64,000 bases of DNA. Source: Anaeramoeba flamelloides. Its lineage: Eukaryota > Metamonada > Anaeramoebidae. Position 1 is the first letter of the stretch. Each line of letters starts with the position of its first letter. The stretch spans positions 3,287,501 through 3,351,500 of the forward strand of contig JANTQA010000076.1 in assembly GCA_027625915.1 (NCBI GenBank). The letters are read 5' to 3'. The notes beneath the pieces were generated by a model. That model was given only the letters and a program-made list of their open reading frames with translations. It had not been told where the DNA came from and made no database searches. Positions 6,561-43,985 of the stretch are shown piece by piece. A program made the translations under genes and the position numbers.

Positions 6561-6715
6561 TTTTATCAATTATTTTTTGGTTATCTTCTATTTTTTCTGT
6601 GATTTGATTTCCATTTTCGTTTTCCTTGTCATTTTTTTCAAGTTCATTTTCATTTGCATCTTCCTTCTCTTTTTTTTCAGTTTCATTTTCATCTTCATTT
6701 TTGAACCAAATTCCT

Positions 6716-6735
6716 TTTCCTTTTTCTTTTTCTTT

Positions 6736-6767
<32 letters not shown>

Positions 6768-6783
6768 TTTCTTTTTCTTTGTT
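6716..6783. repeat. (CTTTTT)n microsatellite, second block
   Basis: A second hexanucleotide tract, read as Lys-Glu repeats in the minus-strand frame that ends at 6514. It is separated from the first by about 155 bp of non-repetitive acidic/Asn-rich coding-like sequence. Confidence 0.85.
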
Positions 6784-6848
6784 TATCAGATGATCGGAAC
6801 TTAAAGATACACCATCGAGAAAATCTATTGGGCGAGTGAAATCATAAA

Positions 6849-6935
6849 TGGAATCGTAAGTGGATTCGTAAGTGGAATCGTAAGTGGAATCGTAAGTGGA
6901 TTCGTAAGTGGAATCAAAAGTGAAATCGTAAGTGG
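6849..6935. repeat. Tandem 12-bp repeat encoding a TYDS/TYES tract
   Basis: About seven copies of GTAAGTGGAWTC in tandem. On the minus strand each unit gives Asp/Glu-Ser-Thr-Tyr. Variation among copies is mostly a single base that swaps Asp and Glu. Typical slippage-grown protein repeat. Confidence 0.85.
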
Positions 6936-15116: not shown

Positions 15117-16919
15117 TTAAAAATTTTCTTTCTTATCTCCATTCTCATTCCAATTCTCATTATGATCCTGCCTGTCTATCATCAAAGGATCTTTTTTATT
15201 TTTGTTAAAATAGGGATGATATTGTTCGAAAGAGTTGAGTACCTGTGACTGTATTTGTTTTGAGAGCTGCTTGTTTATCATAAATTGCTTGGAGTTTTGA
15301 CAAGAAATTAATTGGTAGTTCCAGTGTAATGCTGTCATATAAGTACGAGCTTCATAGACATCTTTTTTGAAGTGTTTGTATTTCGGACACCAAAGATTTA
15401 AAGTGCTATTAAAAGTCTCAACAATTGAAGTTTGCCTTGTCGTTAGAAAATGATCTAAATTTTGAAAAATAATTTGTTGATAAATGTTTTGGAGAAGATT
15501 GAGGCATTTAGTATAATCTGAGTGATTTTTTAGTAAAGGTTTTTTTCCTTTCTCTTCTTTCTTCTTTTTTTTTTTTGATTTTTTTCTAAACAATTACTAT
15601 GACATAAATCGAAACAATTTTCATGATTTCCAAAATGATGATCAGCGAAGTTGAACCAAATTTTGAGAAATTCATCAGCATCCTTCGCTAAACAACAACA
15701 AACTTTAAAGTGTGCTTCTACCTTCGTTGAAAAAAATTACTAGATGTTTATAAGTGTAAGAATATTTTGGTCTTTTTCTTGTTTCTCCCTTTTTGGTTAA
15801 TTGGTTTGGTTCTAGAATTCTTTCTGTTGTGCATTTTTTTTTCCAAAGAGATTTGATTTTATTTCCTTTGTGTCCAATACACAAAGAAATTTCCACAGGT
15901 AAGTTTGTTTCTTTAATTCTTTTTATTAGACTTTTTATTTTCATCAGAAATTATTTCATCGATCTCAAGTTCTTTGATCGGTGAAGTGGTCAAAATTTGA
16001 ATTAAACATTGTGCTTCTTCATTTCCCATTCCCTCTTTCTTATCATTTTTACTTAAAGTATCTATTGCTAGTACAAACTGGGTTTTTGCATCAATAAGTA
16101 CTTCCGACAAATATTCTGCTGTTCCTTTTTTTCTCTGAGGCCGAGACCATCTACCATCAACATACACTTGGAGTGGCTGTTCGATTCTTTGTTGTATTCT
16201 TTTTTTGATGCTCGTTCCAGATTTTTTTTGATAGTTGGAATTATGTAAGATCTTTGAAGTGCATAAAATGTGTTTGTACACATTAAAGACTTCGATTCAA
16301 AGAGGTTTGAAAAAATTCGAAGATAATCAGAAAAACCAAAACCAGCAATGAAGATCAATAAAACCATTTTCAAGTTCAACTTCGAAACACAATTATTGAA
16401 CATTGTGTTTGTTGGGTTATAAACAACTTTTTGATTTTTTTCTTTATTTATTATTTCGATTTGGCAACTATGATTAACATCGATGTTGTTTGTGCTAATT
16501 TTTTTATTATTCGCTATCTGAATCAATTCAAGTGGAAATAAAACAAACTTTGTGTTTTCATCAATTTTGATTTCTTTTCTTTTGATCTTTTTTGTATTTT
16601 TCTTTTTGTTTTTCTTTTTAATAAATTTTGTTCATAAATATCAAGGAGTGATTCAAGAAATTGAGTGTTTGATTGGTTAATTTTATTTCTTAAAGTTTGA
16701 AAACGATCTCTTGTTTTTTGTTTCGAACGAGATACGTGGGTGATTACTATTAAATTTTTTTTGACTTTTTTTCTGTTGCGTATCTTTTTTTTTCTTTTTT
16801 TTTCCTTTTTTTTTTTCACATTCGAATCTCTGCAGAAGTTCTTCTTGTTCTTCTTGCTGACAAATCTTGTCTCTTAATATCTGTGTTTCGTCAGACTCGA
16901 ACACAATCTCTGCTTTCAA
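15117..16919 (-). pseudogene. Mutator-like (MULE) transposase, frameshifted
   Basis: Transposase pieces run from 16919 to 15117 on the minus strand in at least four frame changes. In order: a Lys/Glu-rich N-terminal coiled region (16919-16523); a middle piece with TFYALQRSYIIPTIKK; YVDGRWSRPQRKKGTAEYLS with the likely first catalytic Asp (16161-16147 encodes VDGRW); IDEIISDEN with the likely second Asp (about 15970); KVEAHFKVCCCLAKD with the likely Glu (about 15715); then FETFNSTLNLWCPK-like and EARTYMTALHWNY tail sequence. The order D...D...E and the tail resemble the MULE-type transposase domain found in many eukaryotes. The frameshifts make it inactive. Family placement is from recalled motifs, not a search. 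Confidence 0.65.
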
Positions 16920-26213: not shown

Positions 26214-26843
26214 TTAATCAGTTTCATTTGAACTTGAACTTGAATTTGAATATTTTTCAGAACTTTTTTCAGATTCTTCTTCACTTTTCATATAATTATG
26301 GGTATGTAACGCAACTCCATCACTATTTTCTGATTCTTTGTTTATTGATTCTTCAAGATCTGTTGTATCCTCATCCAATTCTGTGTGTGAAAATTTATCA
26401 GTTGGTTTAGATGCAGGGAGTAGAGCAACTGAGTAAGATAACAAATAAGAATTATAAATAACATAGGTTGCTAAAAATTCCAATGAAGTGTTTCTCAAGG
26501 AATTAACAAAGCCACCAGAAACAACTAAAATTGTCAAAATAAATGTAATTGCAGAAATGATAAAAAAGGTATAAAATCTTTTTTTTTGATCTGGCTTTTC
26601 TTTGATTTCAATGAAAACCCGAATACAAGCATAGATTACCCATAAAATATAAAATAGAAAGATCAAAAACATGATAATTTCTAATGTGATAAAACCTGGA
26701 ATATCGTTGGTTGTTTCATATTGACTATCGTTTTTTTCATGCATTTGGCCCCAGATATATATAATAAAGAAGAATAGCCAAAGTAAAAACAATGGAATAA
26801 ACTTTGGTAAATAGAATTTCTTAATTGTTCTTTCTTCTGGTCG
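26214..26843 (-). CDS. TMEM181-like exon 4 (C-terminal TM bundle and tail)
   Basis: Open from the acceptor ...CATAACAG (AG at 26845-26844) to the stop at 26214, 209 residues. It begins RPEERTIKKFYLPKF, a conserved cytosolic-loop/TM entry of the family. It has hydrophobic segments around 26790-26740, 26700-26620, 26570-26500 and 26480-26420. The last ~60 residues are Glu/Ser/Asp-rich and look cytosolic. An AATAAA-like element (about 26191) lies just after the stop. Confidence 0.8.
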   Translation of the reverse strand, partial: RPEERTIKKFYLPKFIPLFLLWLFFFIIYIWGQMHEKNDSQYETTNDIPGFITLEIIMFLIFLFYILWVIYACIRVFIEIKEKPDQKKRFYTFFIISAITFILTILVVSGGFVNSLRNTSLEFLATYVIYNSYLLSYSVALLPASKPTDKFSHTELDEDTTDLEESINKESENSDGVALHTHNYMKSEEESEKSSEKYSNSSSSSNETD

Positions 26844-28813
26844 CTGTTATGTGAGATAATAATGTTAAAAGATAAGAATATTTTGTATTTAATAAATCAG
26901 TATATTATATTTTTTTCTTTTAGTTAATCAAAGATGTTTCCAAATAAAGTAGGTAATTTTCCTTTTGACATTGCAAATAATATTCTCTTTGCAAGTATTT
27001 TTATTTTTAAAATGATAAGATTAAATTTAGAGGGGTATTATTACTTGTTTAAAACCAGCACCCGCTCAATATATTTCAAAATATGTTTCATCAAAATATT
27101 GACAAAAAAACAACGATAAAAAATATTGGTACTTTATTTTGTGAAAAATAGGTTACGATCAATTCCTATAATAAATAGGAAAAATGAGAAAAGACTAATT
27201 TCAACAAAAAATGGGTAACATGTTAAGAATATAAAAGATTTTTTGTACAATTAAATAAACAAAAAAATGTTTTTATAGATTTTTCTTTCTATTGATGAAT
27301 TTTTATCAATATTAAACCTCTTTGGAAAAAATTTTAGTATAATCAAAATGAAAAAAAATACCACTAATTTTACCACCTTAAAAATATCATCTAGAATTGT
27401 GATCAAAAACTTTGATATCTATGATTATAGTAATTTCTTAGAATTCAAAAAAATTCGATTTTTTTTTTTTTTAGTATTGAAGAAGAAGTGTAATTTACAT
27501 TAAGTGAACGTCCTTATAATTAAATTCTCTTCTGAAAATTTAAGTATAAAATCCTAGATTTCACGATTATTGATTAATGAAAATAATTCCAAACTTTCAC
27601 AGTTTAAAATTATTTCATTAAAGTTTAAATCTTATAATTTGTTTAGAAATATTAATCTATTATTATCATAGGAAGGAAATAACCATAGAAAATGATCAAT
27701 ATTTTCTATTATTTCCTTTTGTTTATATTTTAAACATAAAGGACAAAATTTATTTATATATTTTTTTATTTTGTAATAATAATATATATTTAGGCAGTTC
27801 GTAAACGTCCTAAATTTTAAAAATCGTTGAACTTGAAGGATAACTTTTATATTTTTGGGTTACAAATAAAGAATTTTAAAAAAAGTGTAGACTGTTATCA
27901 AGTAACATAGAGTACCTTAAAGTGCCGCAAGGTGCTATAGAGTGCATTTTTTCTTGTGTTTTTCTGTTTTATCTGTAAAATCTATTGATTTTACTAATAA
28001 ATAGAAAACTTTTGAAAAACTAACGGTACTTTTTTATTATTATTCTTTTTGGTTAGAAAATCGATATAATTTCTAAACAAAAACAAAAATTAAAATATAA
28101 CGACGGTTTTCTTGTAGTTTTCTGTTTTATTCGTAAAGTTTTCTAGGTTTTTTTGAGGTTTTCTATTTTATTTTGTGGTATTCTAGGGTTTTTTTTTACT
28201 TTTTGAAATAAACAGAAAATTTTAATAAATTTTCTGTTTATAATGAAAAGTAAAAAAAAACCTAACAAAAATCTATTGATTTTCTAAATAAATAGAAAAA
28301 TCAAAAAAACCTAACGAAAATCTATTGATTCTTGAAATAAACAGAAAACTCAAGAAAGCCTAATGGATTTTTTTTAATTTATGAAATAAAGAGAAAATTT
28401 TTGAAATTTTCTTTTAAATTGTAGAAAACCTAACGGTGTTTTTTTTTAATTTTTACAATAAAAAGATAAATGAAGAAATTTTCTTTTTATTTCCAAAATT
28501 AAAAAAATGCTAAAGGATTTTTTCTGGGATTCAAAAGAATTAAGTAAAATCGGATATTTTACTCAATTCTTTTAAATTTCAGAAAGACTAACAACACTTC
28601 CAACTGGTTGAATTCAACAACTCATTATAATTGTAATTATAAATTTCTTTTTTAAGAATCTTTAAGTTTTTTAAATTCCAATTAATTTGATTTTTGATTC
28701 ATTGAATTTTAATAATTTTTCAAGATAAGGCAGAGATAAATTTTTTGGTTTATTTTGAAATTTAAAAAATCAATTTATTTAATGAAATTATCATATTTTC
28801 GAATTTAAATTTG

Positions 28814-28846
<33 letters not shown>

Positions 28847-31800
28847 AACATGTTTATTTCTGTTTATTTTGCATATTTACGTAATACATTAATTTATCAA
28901 AGAATTCAAATAATTTAAAGTTGCTATTTTAAACTCATTTTCACTCAAATACTCAGCCAAAAATGAAAAATTCAGTTTTTTTTTAAGAATCGGAAAACTA
29001 AGATTGTTTAGAAATTAGGAAAATAATCAACTTTGGATTAGAGTTGGTATTCATAAAAGAATTACCTGATCAAATCATAAATTTCAAAAAAAAAAAAAAA
29101 TGTAAAAAAAATTTTGGTCAAATTTCATTTAAATGTATCAAGCAAAATTTACTTAATTTCTTTGGAAAATTAAAATTGTTTACAATAAGAATTTTTAATA
29201 GTAATTGTATTCATTTTAAAAGAAATTACAAAGTCTCACTTTTCTTAAAGTCAATTTGAAGTTTTAAAACATTTTTTTTTCAAATTAAATTTGTTTAAAA
29301 AAAAAATAAAAAAAAATGAATAAGAAAAGAAGAAAATTAAAAAAAAAAGAAAAAATGACAAAATTAGAAAAAATAATCAGATTTAAAAATTGAAAAGTTA
29401 TTTTGAGAAGAATAATGAATTAAACTTATAGAATATGTTCTTTTTCTTCAATAAAACTGGGCCAGTTTGACTGAAAAAGAGTCTATAATTATATATTTCT
29501 AATCCATATGTTAATTGTCTTAATATAAAAGATTTTTATAATCTGATTTTCAAATTATTGATGAATAAGAATTACTTTTAAATAATTGTTTAGAATTGTA
29601 ATAAGTTTCTTTTGCCTTTTTAGAATTATATACTAAATGTGAAATTTTTTTACAAGTAAATACCTCAATATTTGTTCATTGATAAATCTTATGAAATTTC
29701 AAAAAATTGGATTGTTATAAATAATCAATTAATAATGATTTTGTAATATTGAAATAGTTGAATTAGGCTTGAGTTTGAATAAAGATATTTTAAAATAAAT
29801 TTACCCTGCTTTTTTTAGAATTATCTAATCATTAAAAAGAAGAAGGGGAAGAAGAAGAAGAAAAGAAATCCAAAATATTGTCTTACATATCGATACCCAT
29901 CAATTAGACAGAGCCAGAACCCCCAAATTCCTAAAAAGAATATTGTTGTTACAAATGCATCGAGAAAAACTACAAATCCGCTGGATGAAAGTAAAAGAAT
30001 TGGCCATAAAGGATTATTAAATAATAATAATAATAAGAGTAAACATGCAACCCATTTTTGTTCAAAATCAAATGTTCTAAAACCATATCCACGAACTCTT
30101 TTTACGAAATAGGTGAAACATATGATATTTAACATGACAAAAACATAGCGGAAAAATAGTTCGAACATTGTCATTCCTCTACGTACAAAAAAAACCTATT
30201 AATCATAATTTTTTAGAATAAAGTGGGAATTATTTTTTAAAAAATAATTTAAATGGATAAGTAATTATAGACTAATTTCTTTATATATATATATATATAT
30301 ATATCCAATGCTAGAAATTTTCATCTCCTGTTGTTTTAAAAAAGTGTGACTTGAAAATTTTCCAAGGTATCCATAAATTGATTGGTAAACTTAAACACGA
30401 TTATTATTGCCTTTTAGAAAAAAAAAATTTTGTTCACATCTTTTCGAAAATAACTTTAGATCTAATGTAAATTTTTTGGGAATAAATCTCAGAATGTATA
30501 CCTAATAATTTCCTTTTTGGAATAAATATTGTTTTTTAATCTATTAAGAAATTATGAATAGCCAAAATTAATTAAATTGTTTATTATTCAATCACAAATA
30601 AAATCAAAGGAAATTGAAAAAATCGGGAATTTTGGAAAAGAAAAAGGGTCTCAGTAGGTGTATATCACAGTTTTTTTTTTTTTTTTTTAAGAATCAACCA
30701 AACTAAGATTGTTTAGAAATACGAGAAATAATAAACTTCAGATTAGAGTTGGGATTCAAAAAAAAAAATACCTGAACAAACCATAAATTTCAAAAAAAAA
30801 AAAAAATTGAAAATATATTTTAAATGCAAATATCAATAATGATATTAAAAATCACTTCTGATGAACAATTCTCAAATATAATGAATTATTTTGAAAACAT
30901 CAGAAGACATCATAAGTGGGTTTTTTTATTAAGTTGGTAAGTACATTTTTCATTTTTTGAGTGCCACCATTTATGTGAAACTGAATTATTCAAATCATTT
31001 CTTTTGCCAAATACATTGATATTTTCATAAATACTAGAGTGGAATATATTCTAGTAATAGATATTTTCATATCAACAAAAAAACGCAAATCAAAAAAATG
31101 AAAAAATTGATCAAAAAAAAAAAATAAATAAAAATCATTTATTACTTGATCTTATCTATAAAATTTTACACAATTACTTATTCTTTATTTGGTTTTATTT
31201 TTAATTCTTTATGAAAAAAATTTTATTTGGAAAATTTTTGATAAACAAATTACTTTTTATTTCGAAAGAATTTCCAAAATGAATTTAAAAATCCTATTTT
31301 CATTTATGTCATCTAATTCTGGTTTGGGTTCAGAAAATCAGAGATTTTTTTAATTCTTCTTGAGAATAAGGGTTTATTGGACAAATTCGTTTGATTTGAT
31401 AATTATTTATTTTCCGATTAAAATGAGAACTCAAAAAAAGACTGAATCTGATTGAAATTTGTTATTGAATTTCTGAATTATTTTGATTTGAATCTTTTGT
31501 AACTGTTTTTTGATTCCAAGAATTCAACTCCTTTATTTTAATTTTTGAAATAGTATTCCTTGTTTTGGCTTTGTTCGAGAAAAATATTTTAAAAAAGAAT
31601 TTTGAAAGCAAATTTGTCACAAAAGGTTTTTTAAAATAATAATAAATAGTAATGGGGCGAGAAATTCAAGCAAAAAAATAGTTTGTATTCAAGCAAAATA
31701 AGAAGATAAAGAAAACCAATCTTCGAAAATAGGCTTTTATCGATTTTTTTTTTTTTCATTCTTGATTTCAACAAATTTATTTGGAATGGTGATCTTTCGT

Positions 31801-34800
31801 GTTTGGTCTTCTAAAAGAAAATATTTTTTTCAAATGCACACCCTTTTGGGTATATTTTGTTGGTTTACTGTTTGGTTAATTTCGATCATTTGTATAAACA
31901 CATTTCTAGATCCAAAACTTTATTTAATAAAACCAAAAATTTAATCAAAAAAAATGTTCAAAAAATTAAAAAAATTAAGATTCAACTCTGAATTACTTTG
32001 ATTCCATTCACAAATAGACTAGTGGATGGTGTTTTAGTTCCAAAGTTTCAATATCTGGTGGCACTCAAAAAATATTTTTTCAGTAATTTTAACACAATTA
32101 AAACTTTTCAAAATGGTAAAATGTACTTACTTCCTCAAAAGATAAAGAATTAAATTAAATATCTAATAATTACTTGTAAAGAAAATGGAAAAAATAGATA
32201 TTTTGTGTATTTAAGACTTTTTAAAACTCTCTCTCTCTCTCGCTTTTTTAATTTCATAAAAAATAATTACTTTTATTTTATTTTTTTTAGTTTAATAAAA
32301 TGTAATTAAAGTAGTGAAAAAAATCCCGGACATGAAAAAAATCCCGGACAAGATTTTTAATTGTGAATATGAGTAAAATTTTTGTGTAATTTCATTTATT
32401 TACAATCAAATCCTTTTTTTAAGAATCAAACTTTTTAAATTATAACTCACCCACTTATTAGAATGATGATTAAAGAAATTACACTTGTTCAAAACACTAT
32501 CCAATCAATCAAAAAACAATATTAAAAATTATTATCATTTTCCAAACTCTAGTAAACCTCTATAAAACTTGATTGTGTTTCAAAAAGTTGATCTACTTAG
32601 ACTATCAAACAATTACTCGAGTATTCTAGAGACACCTTACTTTGATGAACTTTGGGTAGGTTTATTACTAATCTCATAAAAAAATTGGTTATTTATAATA
32701 AGGATTTGATTGTAAATAAATGAAATTACACAAAAATTTTACTAATATTCACAATTAAAAATCTTGTCAGGGATTTTTTTCATGTCCGGTATTTTTTTAC
32801 CTGAATACTTTTATTTGATTTTTTTTAGAAAAAATATTGTTTTTTTATTCTTCAAAAAAATATTATTCAATCATTGAGAGCACACCAAAAATACATAATC
32901 TAATCATTATTAAAAATAATTATCCTTTTTGCAAATTTTTGTTTCGCTTTCATTTGCAGGTTTCATATATTCCCTTTTTTCAGTTATACTTTCTTCAATA
33001 CAATTTTAATTACAGGTGTAATAATATTTTTAAAAGATATCATTTATTAATTATGGTTTTTTCTCGTTAAAAAATTTGTACTATCAAAAAAATGAAACAA
33101 AAAACTTGTTGTGCCTTAATATACAGAGATAATGCATTTTAATGAAAATTTTGTTTTAATGAATATAAAATACCTAAATTCAATTAAAAAACTTTTTGAT
33201 TCAACTCTTTGTTTGCCATTTTGGCTCAACAAACATCCAAGAGTCTTTTGCTGAAATTTGAAAAAAATAAAAATATTTTCAACCATTTAATTATTTTTTA
33301 GAGTTTCTAAAATCAAAATAATTGAAAGAATAGTCAAAGGAAGGGTGTAATTTAACTTTTTTTTTCATGGGATGTGTAACAAATATAGAAAATAATTTTC
33401 TTTTTTTAAAACAATAAATTTGGGAAAATTATTCTTTTTCAAATTTGGCCTAATTTCAAAATTGGTCAAATTCTTATTTTTTTCAAAATAGTCTATCAAT
33501 TGAGTTATATTGACTGTGGGTATTTGAATCCCCCTTTATGGGCAGGTTAAGGTATGTTAGAGTAGGTTAGAGTATGTTAGAGTATGTTAGAGTATGTTTG
33601 GAGAGAATTCTAATCAGGATTTTGTAAAAAAAAAAAGAATTAAGGGGCCAATTAGACTTTTGTAACTTGTTTTAAATTGACAAAAAAATTCCACTTAACT
33701 TAGGTGTTTATAGTTGGGTTTTACGAACAAATTTTTAAAAATATTCAGTATTGATGATTTCAATATTTTGGATTTTATACAATTTAAGTAATGAAATACC
33801 ACTAATCACAAAATAACCTTTTTGATTTTTCCTTCTACAAGCCTTAAAAACAACAAAAATTTTCACACCGATTATAATAATCAAGAAACTCTTCAATTAT
33901 ATAAAAAAAATCAATTTGACAAATTTGGAAATTTGGTCAATTTTGAAATTTAATAATATACCCATAAATTTATTTGCGTCTCTTTACTGAAAAAAAATAC
34001 AACTCCTTTTTTTCAATGTGGTAAGTCTAACAAACACCAAAATAAAACAATTTTAAAACCTAAATAAAAATTATACAAATCTTTCTGATGAGTATGAATT
34101 TTATTTTTACTTTCTTGTTTACTTTATTAAACCAAAAAAAAAAGATAAATTCTAACTACTACCAAATATCCAAGTTATATTTAGTCTTATTCTTAAGAGT
34201 ATATTTATAAATTTTTTGAATTCGCTTGTTACATAAATAATCTCAAAAAGTAAATCACATTGGCAAAAAGGGGTACCAAATCCCCGATGTCTATTAAAGA
34301 TTTACTTTTTTCAAGAAAATTTCGCTTCAAAGGGGGGTAATTAAATTCTTTTTTCCAGTCTCTCACTCTAAAATAAAAAAATGATGAGAGTATTGATAAC
34401 TTTTAGTTGGTTTGAATTTTTGGATTTTAATATAATTAATACAAAATATTAATCGATAAAAATAATTAAAATATAATAATAAGGTTGGTTGGCATGTAAA
34501 ATACGAAAAATATGTATTAAAAATTCGATTTTAAAAATAAAACTTTAAAATATTATAATAGATTGATGTTAAAAAAAAAAAGCAAAATAAAGAATAAAGG
34601 CAAATACAAGAAAAGAAAAAGAAAATCAAACATCGATATAAATGTTAGTAATGAATTCTCTTGTTGTCTTTGGATCTACTTGTAAATCTAAACGGTAGTT
34701 TTGATAATTTAAATATGGTTCATAAACTAAGGTATGTCTTGAACAATTTGATTTTTTCTATTTCAAATATTATATAAATAGGAATAAAATAAAAAAAATT

Positions 34801-37800
34801 AAAGTAAGAAAATGTTATCAAATTAAATTTATGAATTAATGTTGGCAAACTTTGAAAAAAGAAGATTTTTTTTTATAATAGTAGTTTTTCTGCTATGTTT
34901 GTCAAAATAATTAACATTAGATGTCCTCGGTGGAGGTAAAATCAATAGTTATTGGAGAGATCATTGTTATTGAAAATAACCTTAGAAATCACATAGCGAG
35001 TGTAAAAAGTGATATTCGGTTTTTTTATTTTTGTAAAGATTTAGTGTAATGTGAGGTTATTGGGGCAAATAATGTTGAATAAGGTATGTTGTTTGTCGAG
35101 GTTCAATCTAATTGTTAAAAAAAAATGAAAAATAACGAAAAAGAAAATCATGATCAATGCTAACAAAAAAAATATATGATCAATTGTTTATTTTTCTTCT
35201 TCTGTGGATTCTCTACATCTTTAAAAAAAAAAAACATTGATGGATTTTTAATATATTTTTTCATGTTGAACTTGTTTCTTAATTTCCAAAGTTCCTTCTG
35301 ATGAGAAATTTAACTCATTTATATTTCTTCTATTTAGCAAATAATTCTTATTTTGTTCTTTATATTTCAAAAGATCTTTTTTTTTCTGAGCTTTACTTTT
35401 TTTTTTGAAATTTTGAAATTAAAGGTTTGGTAATTTTTGGAATGATAAAAATGTTTACTAAAGTAAAGTTGGTTCACTTTTTGTTTATTGTTTTCACTTT
35501 TGGAAGGCTACTCTAAAATAATAGAAATAATAAAAATGGGCATGCGCTCATTAATGGTATTTGAATTTTAAATGAGCAAAAATTTTCTTTTGAATTTTTG
35601 TTTTTCCATTAGTTTAATAGAAATCCCTAATCAAAGAAATCAAATCAACCTTTATTTAGCTAATATTAATTTCGTAATTTCTTGTAAAGTGTTTAATACA
35701 TATTTATTTTCTTTTTTTTTTTTTTTTTAGTTGGAATGTTAGCTGTTCAACAAAAACTAAGAAAAAAAAAAAGATCAGATGAAAATATTTTATCATCTAA
35801 TCTAAGAACTAGCATAATTTTATCTTCTGTGGAAATTGAAATGAGATGCCTTAATCTATGGTGATAATGTTTTTTTAAAAAAAAGAACTTGTTTTAATGG
35901 ATATACGCATCTAAGTTTGTTTATAATATTGTTAAACCCAACTATTGGTTCGCTAGTTTGATTCAACAAACCCCATAATCTTTTGCTAAAAACAATAAAA
36001 AATTAAAAAGATTTTCAAACCTTTAATGATTTTTTAGAGATACTAAAATCAAAATAATTTAAAGGTTAGTCAAAGAGGGTGAATTTGCTTGTTTTTCTTA
36101 GGAATTTGATTAAATAAAGAAAACAATTTTATTTTTTTGTAAAAATTGAAATTTCATTTAAAATTTTTTTCTTTAAAAAATACAAATCCTTTTTTTCTTT
36201 TCCCAGTTGAATACACATCGCCAAAACAAAACGATTTTTAAACCAAAATTCAAATTAAACTATTCTTTCTATTAGTTGAGAAAATAAATTTCACTTTTTT
36301 GTTATTTTCTTCAATCAAAAAAAGATAAAATATAATTACTATTAATCATTCAAGTTACAAATGGTTTTATTTCCAATGTATATTTGTAATTTTTCAAGCC
36401 CACTGGTAATAAATAATCTCAAAAAGTAAATCTCATTAATGAAAATGAGTACCAAATCCCCGATGTTTATTAAAGATTTAATTTTTTTTTATCGAAATTT
36501 AACTTCTAAAAAAAGCAATTAAAGACTGTTTCACAGTCTTACTCTCAACTAAATAAAGTTTATTTTTTTTAAAATTTCAAATTGTAAGGGATTATTTTTA
36601 AAAAAAAATATTCCCAAAAAAAAAATAAATATCTTCTTATGTTTTCAAAATATTATCGTATTTCAATGTATTTTGTCCTTCCATGCAAATATATTGTGAA
36701 TAAATCTCTAATGATCAAAAAGCTGAGTATACTTGTATTTTTTAACCTTTTTAAATTCAAATTTCAATAAATAATCTTTATTCAATTCCAAATTAATGGA
36801 TTTTTAATTATGTGTTTTCACAATAAGCCAAAAATTGTTTCAGTTTATTATCTTTGGTATTTTTTTTTCTTTATTAGTTTATTGATCTACAATTCCCATT
36901 CAATTTTTAATATTCACACGAGAGTTAATAATTAAACTCTGTTTCAGTCAAAGGGGTCCAACGTTTTTTTCAAATAACAATTATTTTATATAATTGACCT
37001 TTGAAGAACAAATAAGAAATAAAGAGAATAATACACCTCAAAGAAATGTTGATACATGTCTGAAAGAAAACTAATTAATCAATAGATTTTCTTAAAAATT
37101 GAAAAACTCAAATTCTTAGGGCCCTATTGAGAAAAACAAGGATGTTCGTTTTGAACTTTTACTGGTATTTGAATAATAAATATGAAACAATTTTTCACTT
37201 CATTTTCCATACTTTTCTTTTAGAAATTAAGCCCCCAAACAAAGTTTGTTGGTATTTGTGGTCTCTATTTGAAAAAGGAAATGAAAATGAAGTGAAAATT
37301 TTTCACATTTATTAAACAAATATCAAGATCAAAGATCGAATTGAATTGCAATAGAAATCAATAGATTTCTCAACAATCTTTACATGGCTTCAATAGCAAT
37401 AGAATAACACGTTTTTACCAAGTGACTATTGATCTTGCAATAAAAAAATTTTTTGCAAATGAATGAGGTTTTTAAAAAAAAAATCAAAAAAAAAAAAACA
37501 AAAATGTTGAAATGTGAAAAAATGATTTCAATTTTGAAAATTTCGAAAACAAAATTTTTCTTCTAATATCTATGCAAACCCTTTAAACACGTGTATTATA
37601 CTCATTACAACTGGGCCCCTTTGACTAAAAAATAGTTTATTTTGGGTATAGATTACTGAAAATTATAAAAAATAAAAAATATCGAAATTTTTATGAAAGG
37701 CATAGATATATATTAGTCAATAATTATGATTTAAAAGTTAGTGAATTAAAAGAGATGTCAAAAAATTGCATATTTTAGGATTTTTGAGGTTTGGTTTTGA

Positions 37801-40800
37801 ATGGAATAATTTTTTGATCAAAAAATTTTTTAATTTCACAAGTCTAAAAAATGATAATATAATTTTAACGACTACGCTTGCAATTCAACAATTTGTCTCA
37901 AACCAATATACTCCAATCTCTTTTACATTATGAAAGCATGATCTTTAAAATATTCTCCAATTTGGTTCAAAAAATCATTTTAAGTCATTTTTTTAATGAA
38001 AAATCAAAAAGAAATTTTGAGATACGTGAACTCGAACACCTTGTTAATGAACGTGAAAATGAAAAAGAAAAATCACCACTAGTTTCTTGCACGAAAAATT
38101 GAAGATCTTGAAAAAACACTTCTCAATAAACAACTGTAACTTTCGAAGATTACATTGTTAGGATTTTTGAATGTTGGGTTCCTTGAATTGTTCTTGTAAT
38201 TCGTAAATCAGATTAATTCACGACAAAGGGGCTGAGGGTTTCTCTTGTTTTTTGTTTGGTTCTTGTTGTTTTTCCTTGAATAAATCTCCCCACCATGACT
38301 AAGAGGAGAGTATCCCCCAGAATTGGTTGTGGAACAATATGATCCATGCCAAACGCACTTCACATTTTTTTGGTGCTTTTTTGATAAAATTTTTTTTATT
38401 TGGATCCTTTCTCTCAAAACCCAATTTGTTGTGCCAATATAAATTCGGTTGAGGTTGTGTGGGAAAAGTTTTGAAGATTTTTGCATTGAAAGGATCTTTT
38501 CGAAATAATATTTGCCAAAATTAGTCAGTTTTTTTTATTAAAAAAAAAAATATTGAGTCAGTAGAGAAAAAATGATCTTTCAATTTTTTGAAATGTGGAT
38601 TTTGGTGGATTTGATCCAATACCAATACAATTATCCAAGACATTAGTCAAAAAATGTCATAATTGTGAAACAACATCCTTTTTCTTCCAAAATTTTTCTC
38701 TTTTCTAATTTTTGACCTTCTATGTCATTTTTTAAAACCTTCTCATCTTAACCCACAAATCAAAAAAAAGCAATAGAAAGCCCACACTAATTTGTAAGGG
38801 TTTTAAAAAATGACATAAAAACTTATTTTCTCAAAAATTCGATTTTTGCCAACCTTCTTTGTCATTTTGAGATACGACAAAAAAAAATTCAGACATTTTT
38901 TGTAAAAATTTGTCAAGTTTTACTTCTTAGATCTTTCTGGAAAAAACTTTGAGAGATTTACCAACAACCAAACCAGGATAAAAACACATAAATCTTTGAA
39001 TTTGAATTGCAAACGTCGTCATTAAAAGTTTTTTTGATAAATTTGTGTTTTTTTTATTTATCTTTTAAACTTTGTTTTTTGGTTCAAATGAAAATTTTAT
39101 CCCTTTAAGTTTAAAAATATGCTTTATTTATTTTATCTTTAAGGAAGAAATAGAAAGTTTTGTTCTCTTAAAATAAAAGCAATCAATCATTTTTTTCTTA
39201 ATTTTTTATTTTTGTGCTTGCTTTTGGTATTTTTATTTTTTATTTATTTTTTGTTAATTTTTATTTTTACTTTTTCAATACAGCTTTTGAAAACTACGAA
39301 TGAAAGCGTAGTAAAAATCTGCGAAAAGGACAATTATTTTTAAAAATAATTGTTTGATGTACTTCAAAGATTGTAAACATATGTTTATTCCAGTGTGAAA
39401 CAAACAATGTATATACCAAATTATTTGTCACATCAGTAATCAAGTGAAAAAATAAAACCAATTTTAGTCGTTTTTTTTCCCATTTTTGTAAAAAAAAAAA
39501 TTGCAAAAAATTGCAAAAAATTGTGAAATGTTAACCTTGGTTTGACATTTGAGTTTACATCTATGTTGAATTACTATGAAAATTTTGCTAATAATTAAAT
39601 TTTTTTGAATTATAAGGGATTAGTGTCACCATAGATTTCTCTATAATCAAAATATGTTGTAATTGGGTGTAAATGATATTAGTGCTGAATTGTTTATGTG
39701 GCTCCTAAAAAGTCTATTCTAAATATTATTGCACAATAAATTATTGGATTTTTTTTTAAGGATCACAATTATGATTTTTCATTTTTGAAATTATTTTAGT
39801 GAATTCCTTTCCCAAATCTAAAAATAGAAACTCAAAAATAACAATATTCTGGTATTCAAATAATTCATATTTAGAACTTCCAAAAGTAACTATTTTTATA
39901 AATTTTTAATTTCAAAGATTAATTCAATAATCATCAACATTAAAAACCCAAATAATGATTTGTTTTGTTTCTTTTTTATAAATCGAATTGAAACATCTAA
40001 TATATTTTCAATATTTCTAAATAATTTGTCATAGGAATTTCTGAGTACATTATTTGGTTTTTGTAAAATAATAAAATTTTTTTGGCAACTAATCTACATT
40101 TCAAGACAAATTTTAGAATGAGATTTTCTACTTTGGGGTCTGAAAATTGATCATTCAACTTTTAAATTTGTGGTGAAATACACATTTTTTTCTGAAATTG
40201 TTGGGTTTTTTACTACTGGGATTTGAATTAAAAACATGAAAAAATTTTCACTCGATTTTCAATTTCCCTTTACAAATAGATCCCAAATTACAACACACTT
40301 CTGAGAAAACTCCTTTTCTTGAAGGTAAATATGGAAAATGAAGTGAAAATTTTGTCCCATTTAGAATTCAAATATCAGTAATACAATGATCCCCTATAAT
40401 TGATGGGATCAACAAATAGTACTACTTTACTTATCGAATTTTTTAAGGCATTTGATCCATGGGGTACTGAATGCGATTTACACCGAATAACAACATACTT
40501 TAATCCTAGACTTCTCATTGATAGACACTAATTCCTTAACATTTTATTTTTTGGTGTTAACATTTTCAGAAGTTGTGTTAACATTTCAAAGATGTTAACA
40601 TATCAAGATGGAAATGTTGTCATTACAAGAATGTTACTACTACTAATTCTAACTTATATATCTCAACATGAATTCAATCAAACCTACTCCCGCTTGTCTA
40701 CCCAAACTAGGCTACACCTATACCCTAAGAAACATACCCATACCCCTGCCATACAGAGTCTAATCTACTCTAATCCATCTAAACATACCTACCATAACCG

Positions 40801-43800
40801 AACCTACTTTACCCCCAAACACATCTATTAAAAAGTCAACACTATGTTAACATTTTCGGCATGCCCAAAGAAACGCCAACGGTGCCAACACAATGTTAAC
40901 AATTTGAGTATGTCAACAGAATTTAAAATGGTTTGCAGTTTTTCGTAAATTTTTTTTTCCTTGATTATTTGGGAAAAAAAAACACCTAAAATTGATATTG
41001 TTTTTTCACTTGATTACTGAGGTGACAAATAATTTGGTATATACATTGTTTGTTTCACACTGGAATAAACATATGTTTACAATCTTTGAAGTACATCAAA
41101 CAATTATTTTTAAAAATAATTTTCCTTTTTGTAGATTTTCGCTTTGCTTTCATCCGTAGTTTTCATATATTCCCTTTCGTCAACTACTGTTAATTGCAAA
41201 ATAAAAATATCAAAATTTTTATTTAGCTTTCCAAAAGAGCCACATCTCAATAATGTAAAATAAATCAGAAAAGACCCCAATTCTAAAAGAAGGGACTGAA
41301 TAATTTAAGATTTGTATACAGAATTAAAATTTTGGAATGGTACATGATTTATTAGAATCTTTATTTTTTTAGAAAGCTGAATGAAAATTTTGTTTCCTTT
41401 ATTTTGCAACAAATAAACTAAAATTCAAAATTTTCCACACAGCTAAAACGTAACAAACAATCACAATAATACAATTTCATTGAAATTGGAGATAATTTTG
41501 ATTTTTGTAAAAAATGAAAATCATTTTTTCATCTTTTGGTTTTTGTTTTTATTTCATTGTTTGAATTACGTAATTTGCTTCGTTCGATCAAAAATTTTTT
41601 TCAAAGATTGATATTAAGTTAAAGCCAAGTTGTTCCAAATAGAAGAACTCAAATAAAATTAGTTGGTAGTATCTAACCATTTGATCGATCAATATTCCTA
41701 ATAGAATTTAAACAAATTTACTAATGTATTTTTTTGTTTTGCTCTCTCCAAAATTTTTAACACACCCATGATTTATTTGTATTGATAATTATTTATTTAT
41801 TGTTTTGTGAGTATTGTAATTTATAAACAAGTGTTAACATTTCAATTAGTGAATGGTTCTAATTTGGTAAATCTTCTTGAATTGATTAAATAAGGTTTTT
41901 TTTCACAAATCGAATTTTGGTGTGTTAAAAATTTTGAATTGGGGTTTAGTATAAAAATATTTTCTTTCTTTTTTTTTCGTCTTCTCTATTTGTCCTTTCC
42001 AATTATTTAAAGAAACGCTATCCTTTTATTTTTTTTAATACTTGTTAGGGTATAATGTGTATAAAAATCACTAGATAGAGTTTAGTGGTTCTTGCAAACA
42101 GGGAGTTTCTATCTTTGGATATTACGTCTGTTCTATCCAATAATAAAAAAATAAAAATTAAAATCATGTTTTTTTTTCATTAATGGGGATACTCTTCACC
42201 TGTCTGTGCAAGGTGGGCTTGCCAGTATATTTGATGTTTTTTAAATGACAACAAATTCCATTTAATAAACCATATATAGGTGTTTGGGTTTTTTTTATTG
42301 GTTTTGGAAATTATATTTCCAATTTTCCTATTTCTGTTTCTACTTCAAACTACTTCCTTTCTGTTTTGAATGCAATAAAATGTTACTAAATACACTAAAT
42401 ATACAGGAAATCTAACTTTCTCGAGTGTAGGAAGACTAGAAAAGTACCGCCATTAATGAAAAAAAATATAAATTTATCAAAAAAACTTGTGATTATTTAG
42501 ATATCATTTTTTAAACTTCTGTAGTTGCCCCTACTTTTGATGGAAAAAAAAATTCAATTTGTACTTTTATTTTTTCAATCTTATTAAGGTCTATATATAT
42601 CTTATTATCTGAGAGGGTTGTAATGTAATATCATAGTAAAGAAAAATGATTTAAAAGTTTGTGAATTAAAGAAAAGTCAAAATATTGCAAATTTTTAGTT
42701 TTTTTGAGGTTGGATTTTGAATGGAAACATTTATTGATCAAAAAATTTAATGAATTTCCGAACAAAAAAAGGGAAATTATAAAATTTAAAATCGATTTTT
42801 TTTACCCTTTATCAAAAGTTTTTTCCAATTTCCTTTCGAGTATATTGATCCACTTTCCCTAAACACTATAATCTTTTGTAAGGGTGAGGTGGACTTTTCA
42901 TCATGAAATTTTGATTTTCAACCTTTTAAAGGTAAATTTTAGGTTTTTGGAAATCAGAAAAGGTTTTATCCAAAGCACAAGATTGTGATTTTGTTTTTTT
43001 TTCCGAGATTTTAAATTCAAATAATATTGATTGTCTCAATCTTCTTTAAAATCAATATTATGTTGTTAGAGCATAAAAGTACTATTTGTTCTAAAATAAA
43101 TTGAACAAAATTTTCATTCAGCTTTCCAAAAATGTGGTTTTATATTCATGTATCATTTCAAATTTTTAATTCTTAAAATCAGCTTAAATTATTAATTTAC
43201 CTTTTTTTCAGAATTGGGGACTTTGACGATTTATTTTAATTGATGATATGTGATTTTTTAAGGAAAGCTTGACTGAAAATTTTGATCTTTTTATTTTACA
43301 ATTAACAGCAATCTGAAGGTGTTAAAAAATTCTGTTGGTTCTTAAAGATACAAGCAAGAAGAATATTTCAACAAAATAGAAAATTGTAATATGGTTGTGT
43401 AAATTCTTTTTCGTCAGTTTGTTCAGACTCAAAAGAAAATGTACATTGCCATTTTTTTTTTAAGAAGAAGAACTTTTTTGAATTTTTTTTTTTCAAAAGG
43501 CTTTCTTTTAGATCTTCAAAACGGGTCTTTTTGACTTTGTTTTTTGGGAACCCAAATTACCTTCAATTTTGGAACAAAAAGACACTTGAAAAAGAAAAGA
43601 AAAAAATGGTTGTGTGTGAAAAATTTACCTCGCATGTAACTGTCCGTGTATGAGTTGATGAAGAAAGTTCCGTCCACTTATTTTTGGGCAGATCATAATC
43701 GTTTGTCGCGGTTAATTTAAGAATGAAATCTACTTCTGTTTTGACATCTACACTCAACAATGAGGAAAAATGCACGTCAATGTATAAGAATTCGTTCAGT

Positions 43801-43985
43801 CGGTTTAAGTCATGTACAGTTGCATAATACTCTGTATCATCGCGCCAATTAAAAACCATCTCCTTTTTTTTATAAACATCAGGACCAAAGGATCCGAACA
43901 AGAAACCTAACCCACAAAGCAGACAAAATTGAAAAATAAAAAAAGCTATTTGTTTGTTTGACCAATTGTCTAGAAATATTTTCAT
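26214..43985 (-). CDS. TMEM181/Wntless-like seven-transmembrane protein, four-exon model (473 aa)
   Basis: Spliced model on the minus strand: 43985-43629, 34757-34632, 30195-29887, 26843-26214. All junctions are phase 0 with donors GTAAAT, GTTTGA, GTAAGA and acceptors AATAG, AATAG, ACAG. Exon 1 gives a signal-anchor/first TM (IAFFIFQFCLLCGLGFLFG) and the start of a lumenal GOLD-like domain ending HTRTVTCE. Exon 2 adds its Cys-containing second half. Exon 3 starts the TM bundle with the family motif FEQKWVACLLLLLLLFNNPL and FWLCLIDGYRY. Exon 4 continues KKFYLPKFIPLFLLWLFF, four further TMs and an acidic/Ser-rich cytosolic tail. The family (Wntless/TMEM181) comprises Golgi/endosome membrane proteins that carry or sort cargo; its role in this organism is not known. 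The exceptional feature is 16.3 kb of intron, mostly transposons. An alternative is that exon 1 belongs to a different paralogue, but exon order, phase and domain continuity argue for one gene. Confidence 0.7.
27890..28610. repeat. Palindrome array, copy 1, in TMEM181-like intron 3
   Basis: A run of distinct imperfect palindromes of ~60-75 bp. One is centred near 28228 (arms TTTTTTACTTTTTGAAATAA / TTAT..TGAAAAGTAAAAAA), followed by CCTAAC. Others are at about 28368-28435 and 28440-28515, and one near 28520-28590 has arms ATTCAAAAGAATTAAGTAAA / TTTTACTCAATTCTTTTAAA. Linkers carry CTATTGATTTTC, AAATAAAYAGAAAA and CCTAACG. The array starts next to a GTGCCGCAAGGTGC-like hairpin at about 27920. 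The same modules recur at 49.2, 49.7 and 62.0 kb. Confidence 0.65.
28816..28844. repeat. (TA)n microsatellite
   Basis: About 14 uninterrupted TA dinucleotides in intron 3 of the TMEM181-like gene. Similar short TA tracts occur at 30281-30304, 49474-49498, 51511-51528 and 53300-53320. Confidence 0.9.
28930..29486. mobile_element. Repeat family H, copy 2, in TMEM181-like intron 3
   Basis: Starts TTAAACTCATTTTCACTCAA and ends GGGCCAGTTTGACTGAAAAA then GAGTCTATA. It aligns with the reverse complement of 1132-1684. A shorter fragment of the same family is at about 30682-30807 (shared AACTAAGATTGTTTAGAAAT). The 71-codon plus-strand frame inside is not a gene. Confidence 0.6.
29887..30195 (-). CDS. 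TMEM181-like exon 3 (start of the transmembrane bundle)
   Basis: 103 codons in phase 0, acceptor ...ATTAATAG at 30197-30196, donor GTAAGA at 29886. It begins VFFVRRGMTMFELFFRYVFV, the end of the lumenal domain and next TM. It carries FDFEQKWVACLLLLLLLFNN, the most diagnostic motif of the Wntless/TMEM181 fold, and ends FWLCLIDGYRY. Without the upstream intron the frame could be read from an internal ATG at 30174, but the family pattern continues upstream to 30195. Confidence 0.8.
30926..32128. mobile_element. Possible inverted-repeat element O in TMEM181-like intron 2
   Basis: AAGTACATTTTTCATTTTTT then GAGTGCCACCA at 30930-30965 is inverted near 32060-32125 (TGGTGGCACTCAAAAAATAT and GGTAAAATGTACTTACTTCC). 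The right arm carries about 45 extra bases between the two matching blocks. Non-coding; boundaries approximate. Confidence 0.4.
32312..32802. mobile_element. MITE family P, copy 2 (491 bp), in TMEM181-like intron 2
   Basis: Same ends and internal order as 3656-4202. Here the left arm has a duplicated AAAAAAATCCCGGACAWGA unit. The right arm has TTGTCAGGGATTTTTTTCAT then GTCCGGTATTTTTTT. Shared interior CTCTAGTAAACCTCTATAAA and GATGAACTTTGGG support true homology. Confidence 0.8.
32890..32985. repeat. Fragment of the terminal repeat of element C
   Basis: TAAAAATAATTATCCTTTTT through CGCTTTCATTTGCAGGTTTC then ATATATTCCC aligns with the right end and flank of element C (41105-41175). It appears as a solo arm; no partner was found nearby. 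Confidence 0.5.
33413..33977. mobile_element. Insertion J (~565 bp) inside repeat I, with imperfect inverted ends
   Basis: Left CAATAAATTTGGGAAAATTA ... AATTTCAAAATTGGTCAAAT; right ATTTGGTCAATTTTGAAATT ... ACCCATAAATTTATTTG. It is absent from the second copy of repeat I (35840-36570), which supports insertion. Inside is a short tandem array of GTTAGAGTAT units (33543-33600). Confidence 0.5.
33543..33600. repeat. Short tandem repeat of GGTTAGAGTAT-type units
   Basis: About five copies of a 10-11-bp unit (GTATGTTAGA / GTAGGTTAGA), G+T-biased on the plus strand, within insertion J. The C+A-rich tract at 40677-40835 carries related CATACC/CTAACC-like words on the opposite strand. Confidence 0.7.
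34632..34757 (-). CDS. TMEM181-like exon 2 (second half of lumenal domain)
   Basis: 42 codons, phase 0 at both ends. Acceptor GAAATAG (AG at 34759-34758), donor GTTTGA at 34631. It encodes KKSNCSRHTLVYEPYLNYQN then YRLDLQV...NIYID. With exon 1 it gives the Cys-x-n-Cys, hydrophobic strand, Tyr-x-x-Tyr pattern expected before the TM bundle, and it joins VFFVRRGMTMFELFFRY of exon 3. The surrounding DNA is non-coding, so this is an isolated short exon recovered by family expectation. Confidence 0.65.
34758..35839. other. Start of TMEM181-like intron 1 in window coordinates, nothing else recognised
   Basis: Non-coding AT-rich DNA upstream of the exon 2 acceptor. No inverted repeat or frame could be supported. 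Confidence 0.5.
35840..36570. repeat. Dispersed repeat family I, copy 2, in TMEM181-like intron 1
   Basis: Aligns in direct orientation with 33095-34390 but lacks insertion J, so it shows the uninterrupted ~730-bp state of the repeat. Confidence 0.55.
36933..37640. mobile_element. Element with family-H-type ends, interrupted by MITE E
   Basis: Left end TAAACTCTGTTTCAGTCAAA then GGGGTCCAACG; right end GGGCCCCTTTGACTAAAAAA then TAGTTTA. The termini match family H (1132-1684 and 28930-29486) but the interior does not. MITE E copy 1 (37162-37325) is nested inside. Non-coding. Confidence 0.55.
37162..37325. mobile_element. MITE family E, copy 1
   Basis: Starts CTGGTATTTGAATAATAAAT after TA. It carries the inverted TTTTTCACTTCATTTTCCAT / AATGAAGTGAAAATTTTTCA arms. 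The right end is worn (AAATATCAAG). A 62-codon frame spanning it is spurious: the same amino-acid pattern appears at 45001-45165 because both are copies of this MITE. Confidence 0.7.
37869..39021. mobile_element. TTAA-flanked element B (1153 bp)
   Basis: TTAA (37865-37868) then CGACTACGCTTGCAATTCAA; right end TTGAATTGCAAACGTCGTCA then TTAA (39022-39025). It is the reverse-oriented homologue of element A (13560-17618) and shows the state without the Mutator-like insertion. It carries the coding-like WHGS segment on its minus strand and a 74-codon frame at 37878-38102 (FEIRELEHLVNERENEKEK) whose DNA is also conserved in A. No transposase. Lies in TMEM181-like intron 1. Confidence 0.8.
38208..38486 (-). 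other. Coding-like segment of element B (WHGS family)
   Basis: A 92-codon open frame ending ...NPQPLCRELI, homologous in its middle to 14065-14280 of element A (KNVKCVWHGSYCST, SPLSHGGEI). Nucleotide conservation extends outside the open frame, so selection on the protein is not shown. Function unknown. Confidence 0.35.
39616..40535. mobile_element. TTAA MITE family D, copy 2 (D'), nested in element C
   Basis: Reverse-oriented homologue of 11416-12179. Left GGGATTAGTGTCACCATAGA, preceded by TATAA (TTAA with one change). Right end ...CTAATTCC then TTAA (40536-40539). Relative to the first copy it is longer only by the nested MITE E (40216-40378), so the pair defines that insertion exactly. 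Confidence 0.8.
40216..40378. mobile_element. MITE family E, copy 2, nested in D'
   Basis: TA (40214-40215) then CTGGGATTTGAATT, and ATTCAAATATCAG then TA (40379-40380). Inner arms AATTTTCACTCGATTTTCAA / ATGAAGTGAAAATTTTG. It is absent from the homologous family-D element at 11416-12179, so it is a genuine later insertion. Confidence 0.8.
40677..40835. repeat. Strand-asymmetric C/A/T-rich tract
   Basis: About 150 bp almost without G on the plus strand, rich in CATACC, CCTACC, ACCCC and CTAATC words. It is flanked by clustered GTTAAC palindromes at 40557-40600 and 40850-40905. The 79-codon frame across it (Thr/His/Tyr/Pro-rich) reflects this composition and is not a gene. Confidence 0.5.
41195..41409. 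mobile_element. MITE family M, copy 1
   Basis: Left AATTGCAAAATAAAAATATC ... TTTAGCTTTCCAAAA; right AGAAAGCTGAATGAAAATTT ... CTTTATTTTGCAA. About 45-bp inverted ends, ~210 bp total. Related copies at 43098-43311 and 63234-63445, and a left end at 63978-64000 cut by the window. Confidence 0.65.
41410..43097. other. TMEM181-like intron 1, nothing recognised
   Basis: AT-rich non-coding DNA. A small hairpin-prone segment with GATAGAGTTTAGTGGTTCTT and GGGAGTTTCTATC lies at 42074-42114. Its role is unknown. Confidence 0.45.
43098..43311. mobile_element. MITE family M, copy 2, in TMEM181-like intron 1
   Basis: Left CTAAAATAAATTGAACAAAA then TTTTCATTCAGCTTTCCAAA; right AAGGAAAGCTTGACTGAAAA then TTTTGATC...TATTTTAC. 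Same size and layout as 41195-41409, more diverged. Confidence 0.55.
43629..43985 (-). CDS. TMEM181-like exon 1 (signal-anchor and first half of lumenal domain)
   Basis: ATG at 43985 opens a 119-codon exon ending at donor GAG|GTAAAT (43628). After MKIFLDNWSNKQ comes a hydrophobic helix (about residues 13-31), then a soluble domain with WRDDTEYYATVHDLNRLNEF and a final HTRTVTCE strand. This layout matches the N-terminus of TMEM181-type proteins (TM, then GOLD-like domain). The open frame runs on past the donor to 43563 by chance; the added residues (FFFSFSS) are low complexity. Confidence 0.7.

What the first reader, a model, noticed from the sequence alone, without database searches (positions are those of the whole stretch)
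26214..43985. A 473-aa membrane protein gene inflated to 17.8 kb by transposon-filled introns
Four exons join in phase 0 and rebuild a continuous TMEM181/Wntless-like protein, including an isolated 42-codon exon (34757-34632) that only family expectation reveals. The three introns total about 16.3 kb (92% of the gene) and hold at least ten identifiable elements: families I, J, P, H, E, M, TTAA elements B and D', element C and a palindrome array. The kinase gene's only intron is 131 bp and TOR has 8.1 kb with none, so the inflation is very uneven.
Basis: partly seen in the sequence, partly recalled or inferred. Interest (0 to 1): 0.75.

Follow-up and report, generated by a model that had tools for sequence, protein, structure and literature searches.

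The report
Membrane-protein gene with transposon-packed introns
This is a real four-exon gene for a Wntless-like membrane protein whose introns are stuffed with mobile-DNA debris; its sister genes mostly have a long intron at the same place, although the contents of those introns have been largely replaced.

Summary
The gene is real. Four exons join in phase 0 through GT-AG introns of 8,871, 4,436 and 3,043 bp into 473 codons. WLS-like_TM scores 151.6 bits, cut-off 28.3. The 42-codon exon 2 recurs in all 16 paralogues whose fetched stretch covers it. About three quarters of the intron sequence matches repeats, with nested insertions and empty sites.

Calling it one oddly inflated gene is only partly right. 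In 17 of 17 genes with introns 1 and 2 resolved (this gene and 16 paralogues), an intron of 2.4-8.9 kb lies upstream of exon 3; it is intron 2 in 15. The contents are not shared: a 91%-identical pair keeps its short introns aligned but little of its ~5 kb intron. Adaptin and chaperonin genes also show position-specific long and short gaps. Best reading: long intron is an inherited positional state whose content turns over. This gene has the largest intron total of the 18 measured (16.35 kb; next 10.9 kb). A lead: GTTTG donors concentrate in long introns.

The parts
43629..43985 (-). exon 1 (119 codons): ATG, hydrophobic N-terminus, start of GOLD-like domain
   Evidence: exon dN/dS 0.21 against C1
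34758..43628 (-). intron 1, 8,871 bp, GTAAAT...ATAG; longest of 51 family introns measured
   Evidence: 69% covered by repeats
34632..34757 (-). exon 2 (42 codons), present in all 16 paralogues whose stretch covers it
   Evidence: dN/dS 0.23 over 42 codons
30196..34631 (-). intron 2, 4,436 bp, GTTTGA...ATAG; the position that is long in 15 of 17 genes
   Evidence: 78% covered by repeats
29887..30195 (-). exon 3 (103 codons), first half of WLS-like transmembrane domain
   Evidence: Pfam 71.9 bits alone; dN/dS 0.075
26844..29886 (-). intron 3, 3,043 bp (144 bp in nearest paralogue C1)
   Evidence: 95% covered by repeats
26214..26843 (-). exon 4 (209 codons + stop), second half of TM domain and acidic/serine-rich tail
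   Evidence: Pfam 73.5 bits alone
41413..41949 (.). 537-bp repeat element; 3,631 candidate places in the genome at first look, 40 scored
   Evidence: 40 of 40 scored places are near full length at 96% identity or more, self included
33422..33963 (.). 542-bp element with 8-bp direct repeats ATAAATTT and GGG-starting terminal inverted repeats, inserted into another repeat
   Evidence: three contiguous empty-site matches at 71-74%
40213..40381 (.). ~169-bp MITE-like element (CTGGGATTTGAA / CTGATATTTGAA ends, probable TA duplication) nested in the 39608-40539 repeat
   Evidence: two empty-site matches at 80%
37160..37332 (.). copy of the same MITE-like family, nested in the 36924-37642 repeat
   Evidence: five empty-site matches
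28925..29492 (.). ~568-bp element nested in a repeat spanning 28476-29696
   Evidence: three empty-site matches
30923..32151 (.). 1.2-kb repeat, 93% identical to a copy in paralogue C22
32279..32855 (.). element with ~158-bp inverted ends (85%)
35836..36930 (.). 1.1-kb repeat; a second, interrupted copy lies at 33098-34381
28031..28596 (.). 49-bp-unit tandem / palindromic array, related to 62062-62254

Best explanation
An intact gene of a large Wntless-like (PF06664) family whose introns have filled with DNA-transposon derivatives. In this genome an intron position tends to be either short (about 0.1-0.5 kb) or long (about 1.8-9 kb). The state passes to gene copies at duplication and sometimes switches, while the sequence inside a long intron is replaced by new insertions and deletions. 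The most likely mechanism, which is inferred, is a threshold process: an insertion into a short intron usually harms splicing and is lost, whereas an intron already past the threshold tolerates more until insertion and deletion balance. This gene's introns 1 and 3 probably grew after it split from its nearest paralogue. Shown: exon structure, family conservation, repeats, nested insertions, position-specific lengths in three families, content turnover in the WLS-like family. Inferred: tolerance as the cause, splicing as the constraint, and that long introns of the other families hold transposons too (their content was not examined).
For: Gene model. Same three intron positions in the family; of 17 introns at each position, 161 is 1.76 kb or longer in 15, 119 in 4, 264 in 7. 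17 of 17 genes with introns 1-2 resolved have a long one there. C70 and C64b, with intron 1 long and intron 2 short, form a clade (97/96), consistent with one switch. C64a/C72a (91% aa): introns 1 and 3 align at 82-84%, intron 2 (5.4/4.8 kb) in 0.7-0.8 kb; C9/C17 keep about 2.35 kb of intron 2 collinear. Adaptin: near q185 and q400, 17 of 17 gaps are 1.27-4.05 kb; near q109 and q157-161, 12 of 12 are 0.1-0.5 kb. TCP1: near q215 and q227, 9 of 9 are 2.1-6.4 kb. 51 WLS introns + 47 adaptin gaps fit two modes, 222 bp and 3.2 kb (BIC 141 against 195 for one; 43 at most 490 bp, 5 between, 50 at least 1,760). C1 introns 1 and 3 are 1,896 and 144 bp. Purifying selection, dN/dS 0.18.
Against: TCP1 lengths fill the gap more: 7 of 46 clean gaps (14 of 62 counting those with missing residues) lie between 490 and 1,760 bp, and two genes have 0.5-0.9 kb gaps at q221, close to the long q215 and q227 positions. 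WLS intron 3 is mixed (8 short, 2 middle, 7 long), as are adaptin q256-264 and TCP1 q133 and q365. Kinesin (1 of 10 at 1.8 kb or more) and myosin (0 of 12) have few long gaps. Gaps outside the WLS-like family come from domain-match coordinates, not spliced models; some kinesin gaps of about 1 kb carry one frame length on both sides and may be coding inserts. Rank tests (p 8e-4 WLS, 2.5e-4 adaptin) ignore relatedness. The W-C1 comparison is near saturation (dS 0.84). No transcript data.
Confidence: 0.72

Rival explanations
1. The long intron before the transmembrane exons is kept by selection because it carries something useful (regulatory element, transcription delay, alternative product). Length is conserved because the function needs it.
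For: 17 of 17 genes of this subfamily with resolved introns 1-2 have it. The three fetched genes of a second WLS-like subfamily each have one intron, 2.5-3.6 kb, at a different position, q221 phase 1.
Against: No shared element seen: the commonest 10-, 12- or 14-mer with at least three G/C and all four letters occurs in at most 6 of 20 long introns (exact words only). No convincing alternative exon copies. Content not conserved between close pairs. Similar lengths occur in adaptin and chaperonin genes.
Confidence: 0.13
2. One reading: this one gene was peculiarly inflated, for example by relaxed selection or an insertion hot spot.
For: Largest intron total of 18 family members; introns 1 and 3 far longer than in C1.
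Against: Purifying selection (dN/dS 0.18); long introns are usual in the family and common in two other families examined.
Confidence: 0.1
3. The four exons are not one transcript: exon 1 (or exons 1-2) and exons 3-4 belong to different transcripts.
For: Exon 1 lies 8.9 kb from exon 2, and no RNA evidence is available.
Against: Exon order and phases repeat in 16 paralogues on many contigs; in 13 of the 17 genes intron 1 is only 114-441 bp.
Confidence: 0.03

Closest known systems
Bimodal intron lengths in teleost fish (Jakt et al. 2022, PMC9438311; abstract and outline seen)
   Same: Introns fall into a long and a short class, and introns long in one lineage are long again in distant relatives.
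   Different: There, long introns are more likely to contain conserved sequences and sit in regulatory genes, and short ones come from shrinkage; here, long introns hold turned-over repeats and the comparison is between gene copies within one unnamed eukaryote genome.
WLS-like transmembrane family, Pfam PF06664 (Wntless, TMEM181)
   Same: TM domain scores 151.6 bits (cut-off 28.3); the genome has 109 exon-level matches, 106 marked over the cut-off.
   Different: Neither GOLD domain (WLS 20.5, TMEM181 18.7 bits) reaches its cut-off of 27.9/27.5, so the subfamily is open.
MITEs and other non-autonomous DNA transposons
   Same: Short, multi-copy, terminal inverted repeats, direct repeats at ends, nested. 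The one stop-to-stop frame of 100 aa or more lying wholly in the introns (38208-38534) has no Pfam match.
   Different: Families not assigned to a transposase; piggyBac-type DDE_Tnp_1_7 matches exist in the genome (68) but were not linked to these elements.

Membership tests
PF06664 WLS-like_TM | profile score above the curated cut-off over the TM domain | tested here: met
   151.6 bits against 28.3, residues 169-407, profile 4-245 of 247
TMEM181 proper | TMEM181_GOLD domain PF21885 above its cut-off | tested here: not met
   18.7 bits, cut-off 27.5; so only 'WLS-like' is claimed
Wntless proper | WLS_GOLD domain PF21883 above its cut-off | tested here: not met
   20.5 bits, cut-off 27.9
Wntless proper | carries lipid-modified Wnt ligands (recalled) | not testable with these tools
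   functional assay needed
spliceosomal introns | GT-AG ends at conserved positions and phases among paralogues | tested here: met
   (the aligner used allows only GT-AG introns)
spliceosomal introns | removed from mRNA | not testable with these tools
   no RNA data
non-autonomous DNA transposon (element 33422-33963) | terminal inverted repeats, target duplication, empty site in a related copy | tested here: met
   8-bp duplication and 10 of 14 matching end bases; three contiguous empty-site alignments at 71-74%
non-autonomous DNA transposon (element 41413-41949) | high copy number with uniform ends | tested here: met
   3,631 first-look candidates; 40 of 40 scored near full length at 96% or more, self included

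The most novel reading that the evidence does not exclude
Long introns in this genome form a distinct, inherited class that the splicing machinery handles differently. They are enriched for a GUUUG 5' splice site rather than GUAAG/GUAUG (19 of 62 long against 1 of 46 short), and this class tolerates transposon filling. The donor signal would then help decide where transposons can live inside genes.
Probability: 0.15. Interest if true: 0.65.

Novelty: new member of a known kind. Interest (0 to 1): 0.42.

Why it matters
Transposon-filled introns are well known. What is useful here is a natural series: many gene copies in one genome in which an intron position tends to keep its long or short state while the sequence inside is replaced. 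That allows a test of whether intron length is set by a splicing threshold or by selection on length, in a large AT-rich genome. It also warns that gene finders with intron limits of a few kilobases would split genes like this one and lose exon 2.

Tried and rejected
Alternative or nested family exons in the long introns: only weak tblastn matches outside the known exons (E from 4e-6 in one flank, about 5e-4 to 0.05 in introns, many to exon 4). I read them as chance and did not align them one by one. A shared functional motif: no exact word in more than 6 of 20 long introns. Rfam (gathering threshold) and tRNA genes in the window: none. The 42-75 bp 'introns' inside exon 1 of C9, C17, C57a, C57b and C72b and the 45-bp one in C70 have lengths divisible by three; I treated them as in-frame insertions and dropped them from counts. 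Solved structures by sequence: one match, E 0.68, not meaningful. Organism: Anaeramoeba was considered (PMC11550330, passages and section 10 read); nothing identified the genome. Kinesin and myosin gaps: 1 of 10 and 0 of 12 at or above 1.8 kb, so long introns are not uniform across families. Paper searches: TMEM181/Wntless/amoeba and WLS/TMEM181/gene family/unicellular, 0 papers each; two returned two each, not opened.
Full report
WHAT WAS CHECKED. The window is G000:C76:3287501-3351500 of an unnamed 254-Mb genome in 76 contigs. They join in phase 0 through GT...AG introns of 8,871, 4,436 and 3,043 bp and give 473 residues with no stop. A spliced protein-to-DNA aligner written here returns the same junctions. 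Introns are 16,350 of 17,772 bp.

WHAT THE PROTEIN IS. Pfam WLS-like_TM covers residues 169-407 with 151.6 bits (cut-off 28.3). WLS_GOLD (20.5) and TMEM181_GOLD (18.7) fall below their cut-offs of 27.9 and 27.5. I therefore call it WLS-like and not TMEM181. The genome holds a large family: a protein search lists 100 exon-level matches, with 90 of 187 candidates scored, and the Pfam profile gives 109, of which 106 are marked over the cut-off. These are exon matches, not gene counts.

THE FAMILY. I fetched 17 paralogue loci and aligned the window protein to each. 16 gave exons 1-4 (in C70 exons 3 and 4 are fused); C24b gave only exons 3-4 because the stretch ended. Intron positions after residues 119, 161 and 264, all phase 0, recur. 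Exon 3 is 309 nt in all 17 loci. Exon 2 is found in all 16 loci that cover it, with one strong copy each. Against the nearest paralogue C1 (76% aa), dN/dS is 0.18 overall and 0.23 for exon 2, which is only 42 codons. The isolated exon therefore behaves as coding sequence.

LONG INTRONS ARE A FAMILY STATE. Counting the window gene and introns of at least 1.76 kb: position 161 is long in 15 of 17, position 119 in 4 of 17, position 264 in 7 of 17. Each of the 17 genes with introns 1 and 2 resolved has at least one long intron before exon 3 (2.4-8.9 kb for the longer of the two). The two exceptions at position 161 (C70, C64b) have the long intron at 119 and form a clade with 97/96 support. Three genes of a second subfamily have a single intron of 2.5, 3.6 and 2.9 kb at another position, after residue 221, phase 1.

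THE CONTENT TURNS OVER. In C64a/C72a (91% aa, dS 0.36) introns 1 and 3 align at 82-84% over most or all of their length, but intron 2 (5.4 and 4.8 kb) aligns in only 0.7-0.8 kb. In C9/C17 (dS 0.29) about 2.35 kb of intron 2 stays collinear. In W/C1 (dS 0.84) and C13a/C76b (dS 0.57) only short pieces do. Repeats fill the window introns: 95, 78 and 69% of introns 3, 2 and 1 match DNA elsewhere in the window or the paralogue loci. Intergenic stretches are covered 12-67%, two ORF-bearing stretches and TOR 0%, dNK 8%. The library leans towards introns of this family. With the window left out of it, window introns are covered 61% by paralogue introns and 43% by paralogue flanks; window intergenic DNA 36% and 31% (99.5 kb and 59.7 kb of library). 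Four nested insertions have contiguous empty sites in related copies. One element has an 8-bp target duplication. The 537-bp element at 41413-41949 has 3,631 candidate places in the first look; the 40 scored are near full length and at least 96% identical, self included. That points to a recently active, very abundant family.

OTHER GENES. Adaptin_N: 47 gaps between exon matches, 23 of at least 1.8 kb, with the state tied to position. Near q185, 7 of 7 are 1.76-4.05 kb; near q400, 10 of 10 are 1.27-3.99 kb (nine at q398-401, plus C22, whose second match starts earlier). Near q109, 5 of 5, and q157-161, 7 of 7, are below 0.5 kb. At q256-264 both states occur. TCP1 chaperonins: 46 clean gaps (at most 6 residues missing), 17 of at least 1.76 kb, 22 of at most 490 bp, 7 between; all 62 gaps give 26, 22 and 14. 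q215 and q227 are long in 9 of 9, q133 and q365 are mixed, and two genes have 0.5-0.9 kb at q221. Kinesin: 1 of 10 gaps at or above 1.8 kb; myosin: 0 of 12. 17 ABC transporter genes have both matched domains in one open frame. Pooled WLS and adaptin lengths prefer two modes (222 bp and 3.2 kb; BIC 141 against 195 for one), but TCP1 fills the gap more, so the bimodality is not absolute. None of these tests corrects for shared ancestry, and the content of long introns outside the WLS-like family was not examined.

MECHANISM. The state (long or short) tends to be inherited with the position while the content is not. A threshold model fits: short introns reject insertions; long ones absorb them and are pruned by deletion. 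A selected function for the long intron is possible, but no shared exact word was found, and unrelated gene families show similar lengths.

A LEAD. After seeing the family introns I noticed that 10 of 26 long but 1 of 23 short ones begin GTTTG (p 0.006; two middle-length introns left out). I then tested it on adaptin and TCP1: 60 of the 109 gaps, chosen by position group, donors read by eye without checking acceptors. GTTTG occurs in 9 of 36 long and 0 of 23 short (p 0.009); the one middle-length junction (about 0.8 kb) also has it and is outside the count. Combined: 19 of 62 against 1 of 46. Counted by position: 7 of 11 against 1 of 9 (p 0.03); adaptin and TCP1 alone 4 of 8 against 0 of 6 (p 0.08). 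The three second-subfamily long introns begin GTAAG. GTTTGT is the 5' consensus of confirmed introns in Entamoeba invadens and histolytica (PMC4053983, one passage read). This is suggestive, not established.

LITERATURE. Two intron size classes, with long introns persisting across species, are described for teleosts (PMC9438311 and PMC11600626, abstracts and outlines seen). The two searches made on this gene family in unicellular organisms returned 0 papers in the held library; subscription papers are mostly not held.

VERDICT. Observation confirmed; interpretation partly supported; a known kind of thing in an extreme member, with a wider pattern worth a genome-wide test. On re-checking, the confidence of the main explanation was lowered from 0.75 to 0.72 because intron content outside the family was not examined, and that of the selected-function rival raised from 0.12 to 0.13.

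Noticed in passing
window 54001-56000: GC rises to 40% in a window of 24% GC, inside the 3' part of the intronless TOR gene.
   Followed up: no
G000:C51:1649199-1649996(-) and 1661972-1662769(+); C70:4300452(-) and 4315326(+): Chaperonin gene pairs in opposite orientation about 12-14 kb apart on two contigs, with equal scores on C51: look like inverted duplicates.
   Followed up: no
genome-wide: Kinesin, myosin, adaptin and chaperonin matches appear in sets of about 2-6 similar copies on different contigs, which suggests whole-genome or large segmental duplications.
   Followed up: no
WLS introns, adaptin/TCP1 junctions L044-L103: GTTTG donors are concentrated in long introns at several positions.
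   Followed up: partly
L041-L043: A second WLS-like subfamily with one intron at another position (after residue 221, phase 1), again 2.5-3.6 kb.
   Followed up: partly
window 6514-9161 and 15117-16873: Minus-strand ORF clusters with no repeat matches (0% covered) and no Pfam match in the parts tested; possibly lineage-specific genes.
   Followed up: no
window 62062-62254 and 28209-28400: A 49-bp tandem array shared in inverted orientation between the flank of TOR and intron 3.
   Followed up: no
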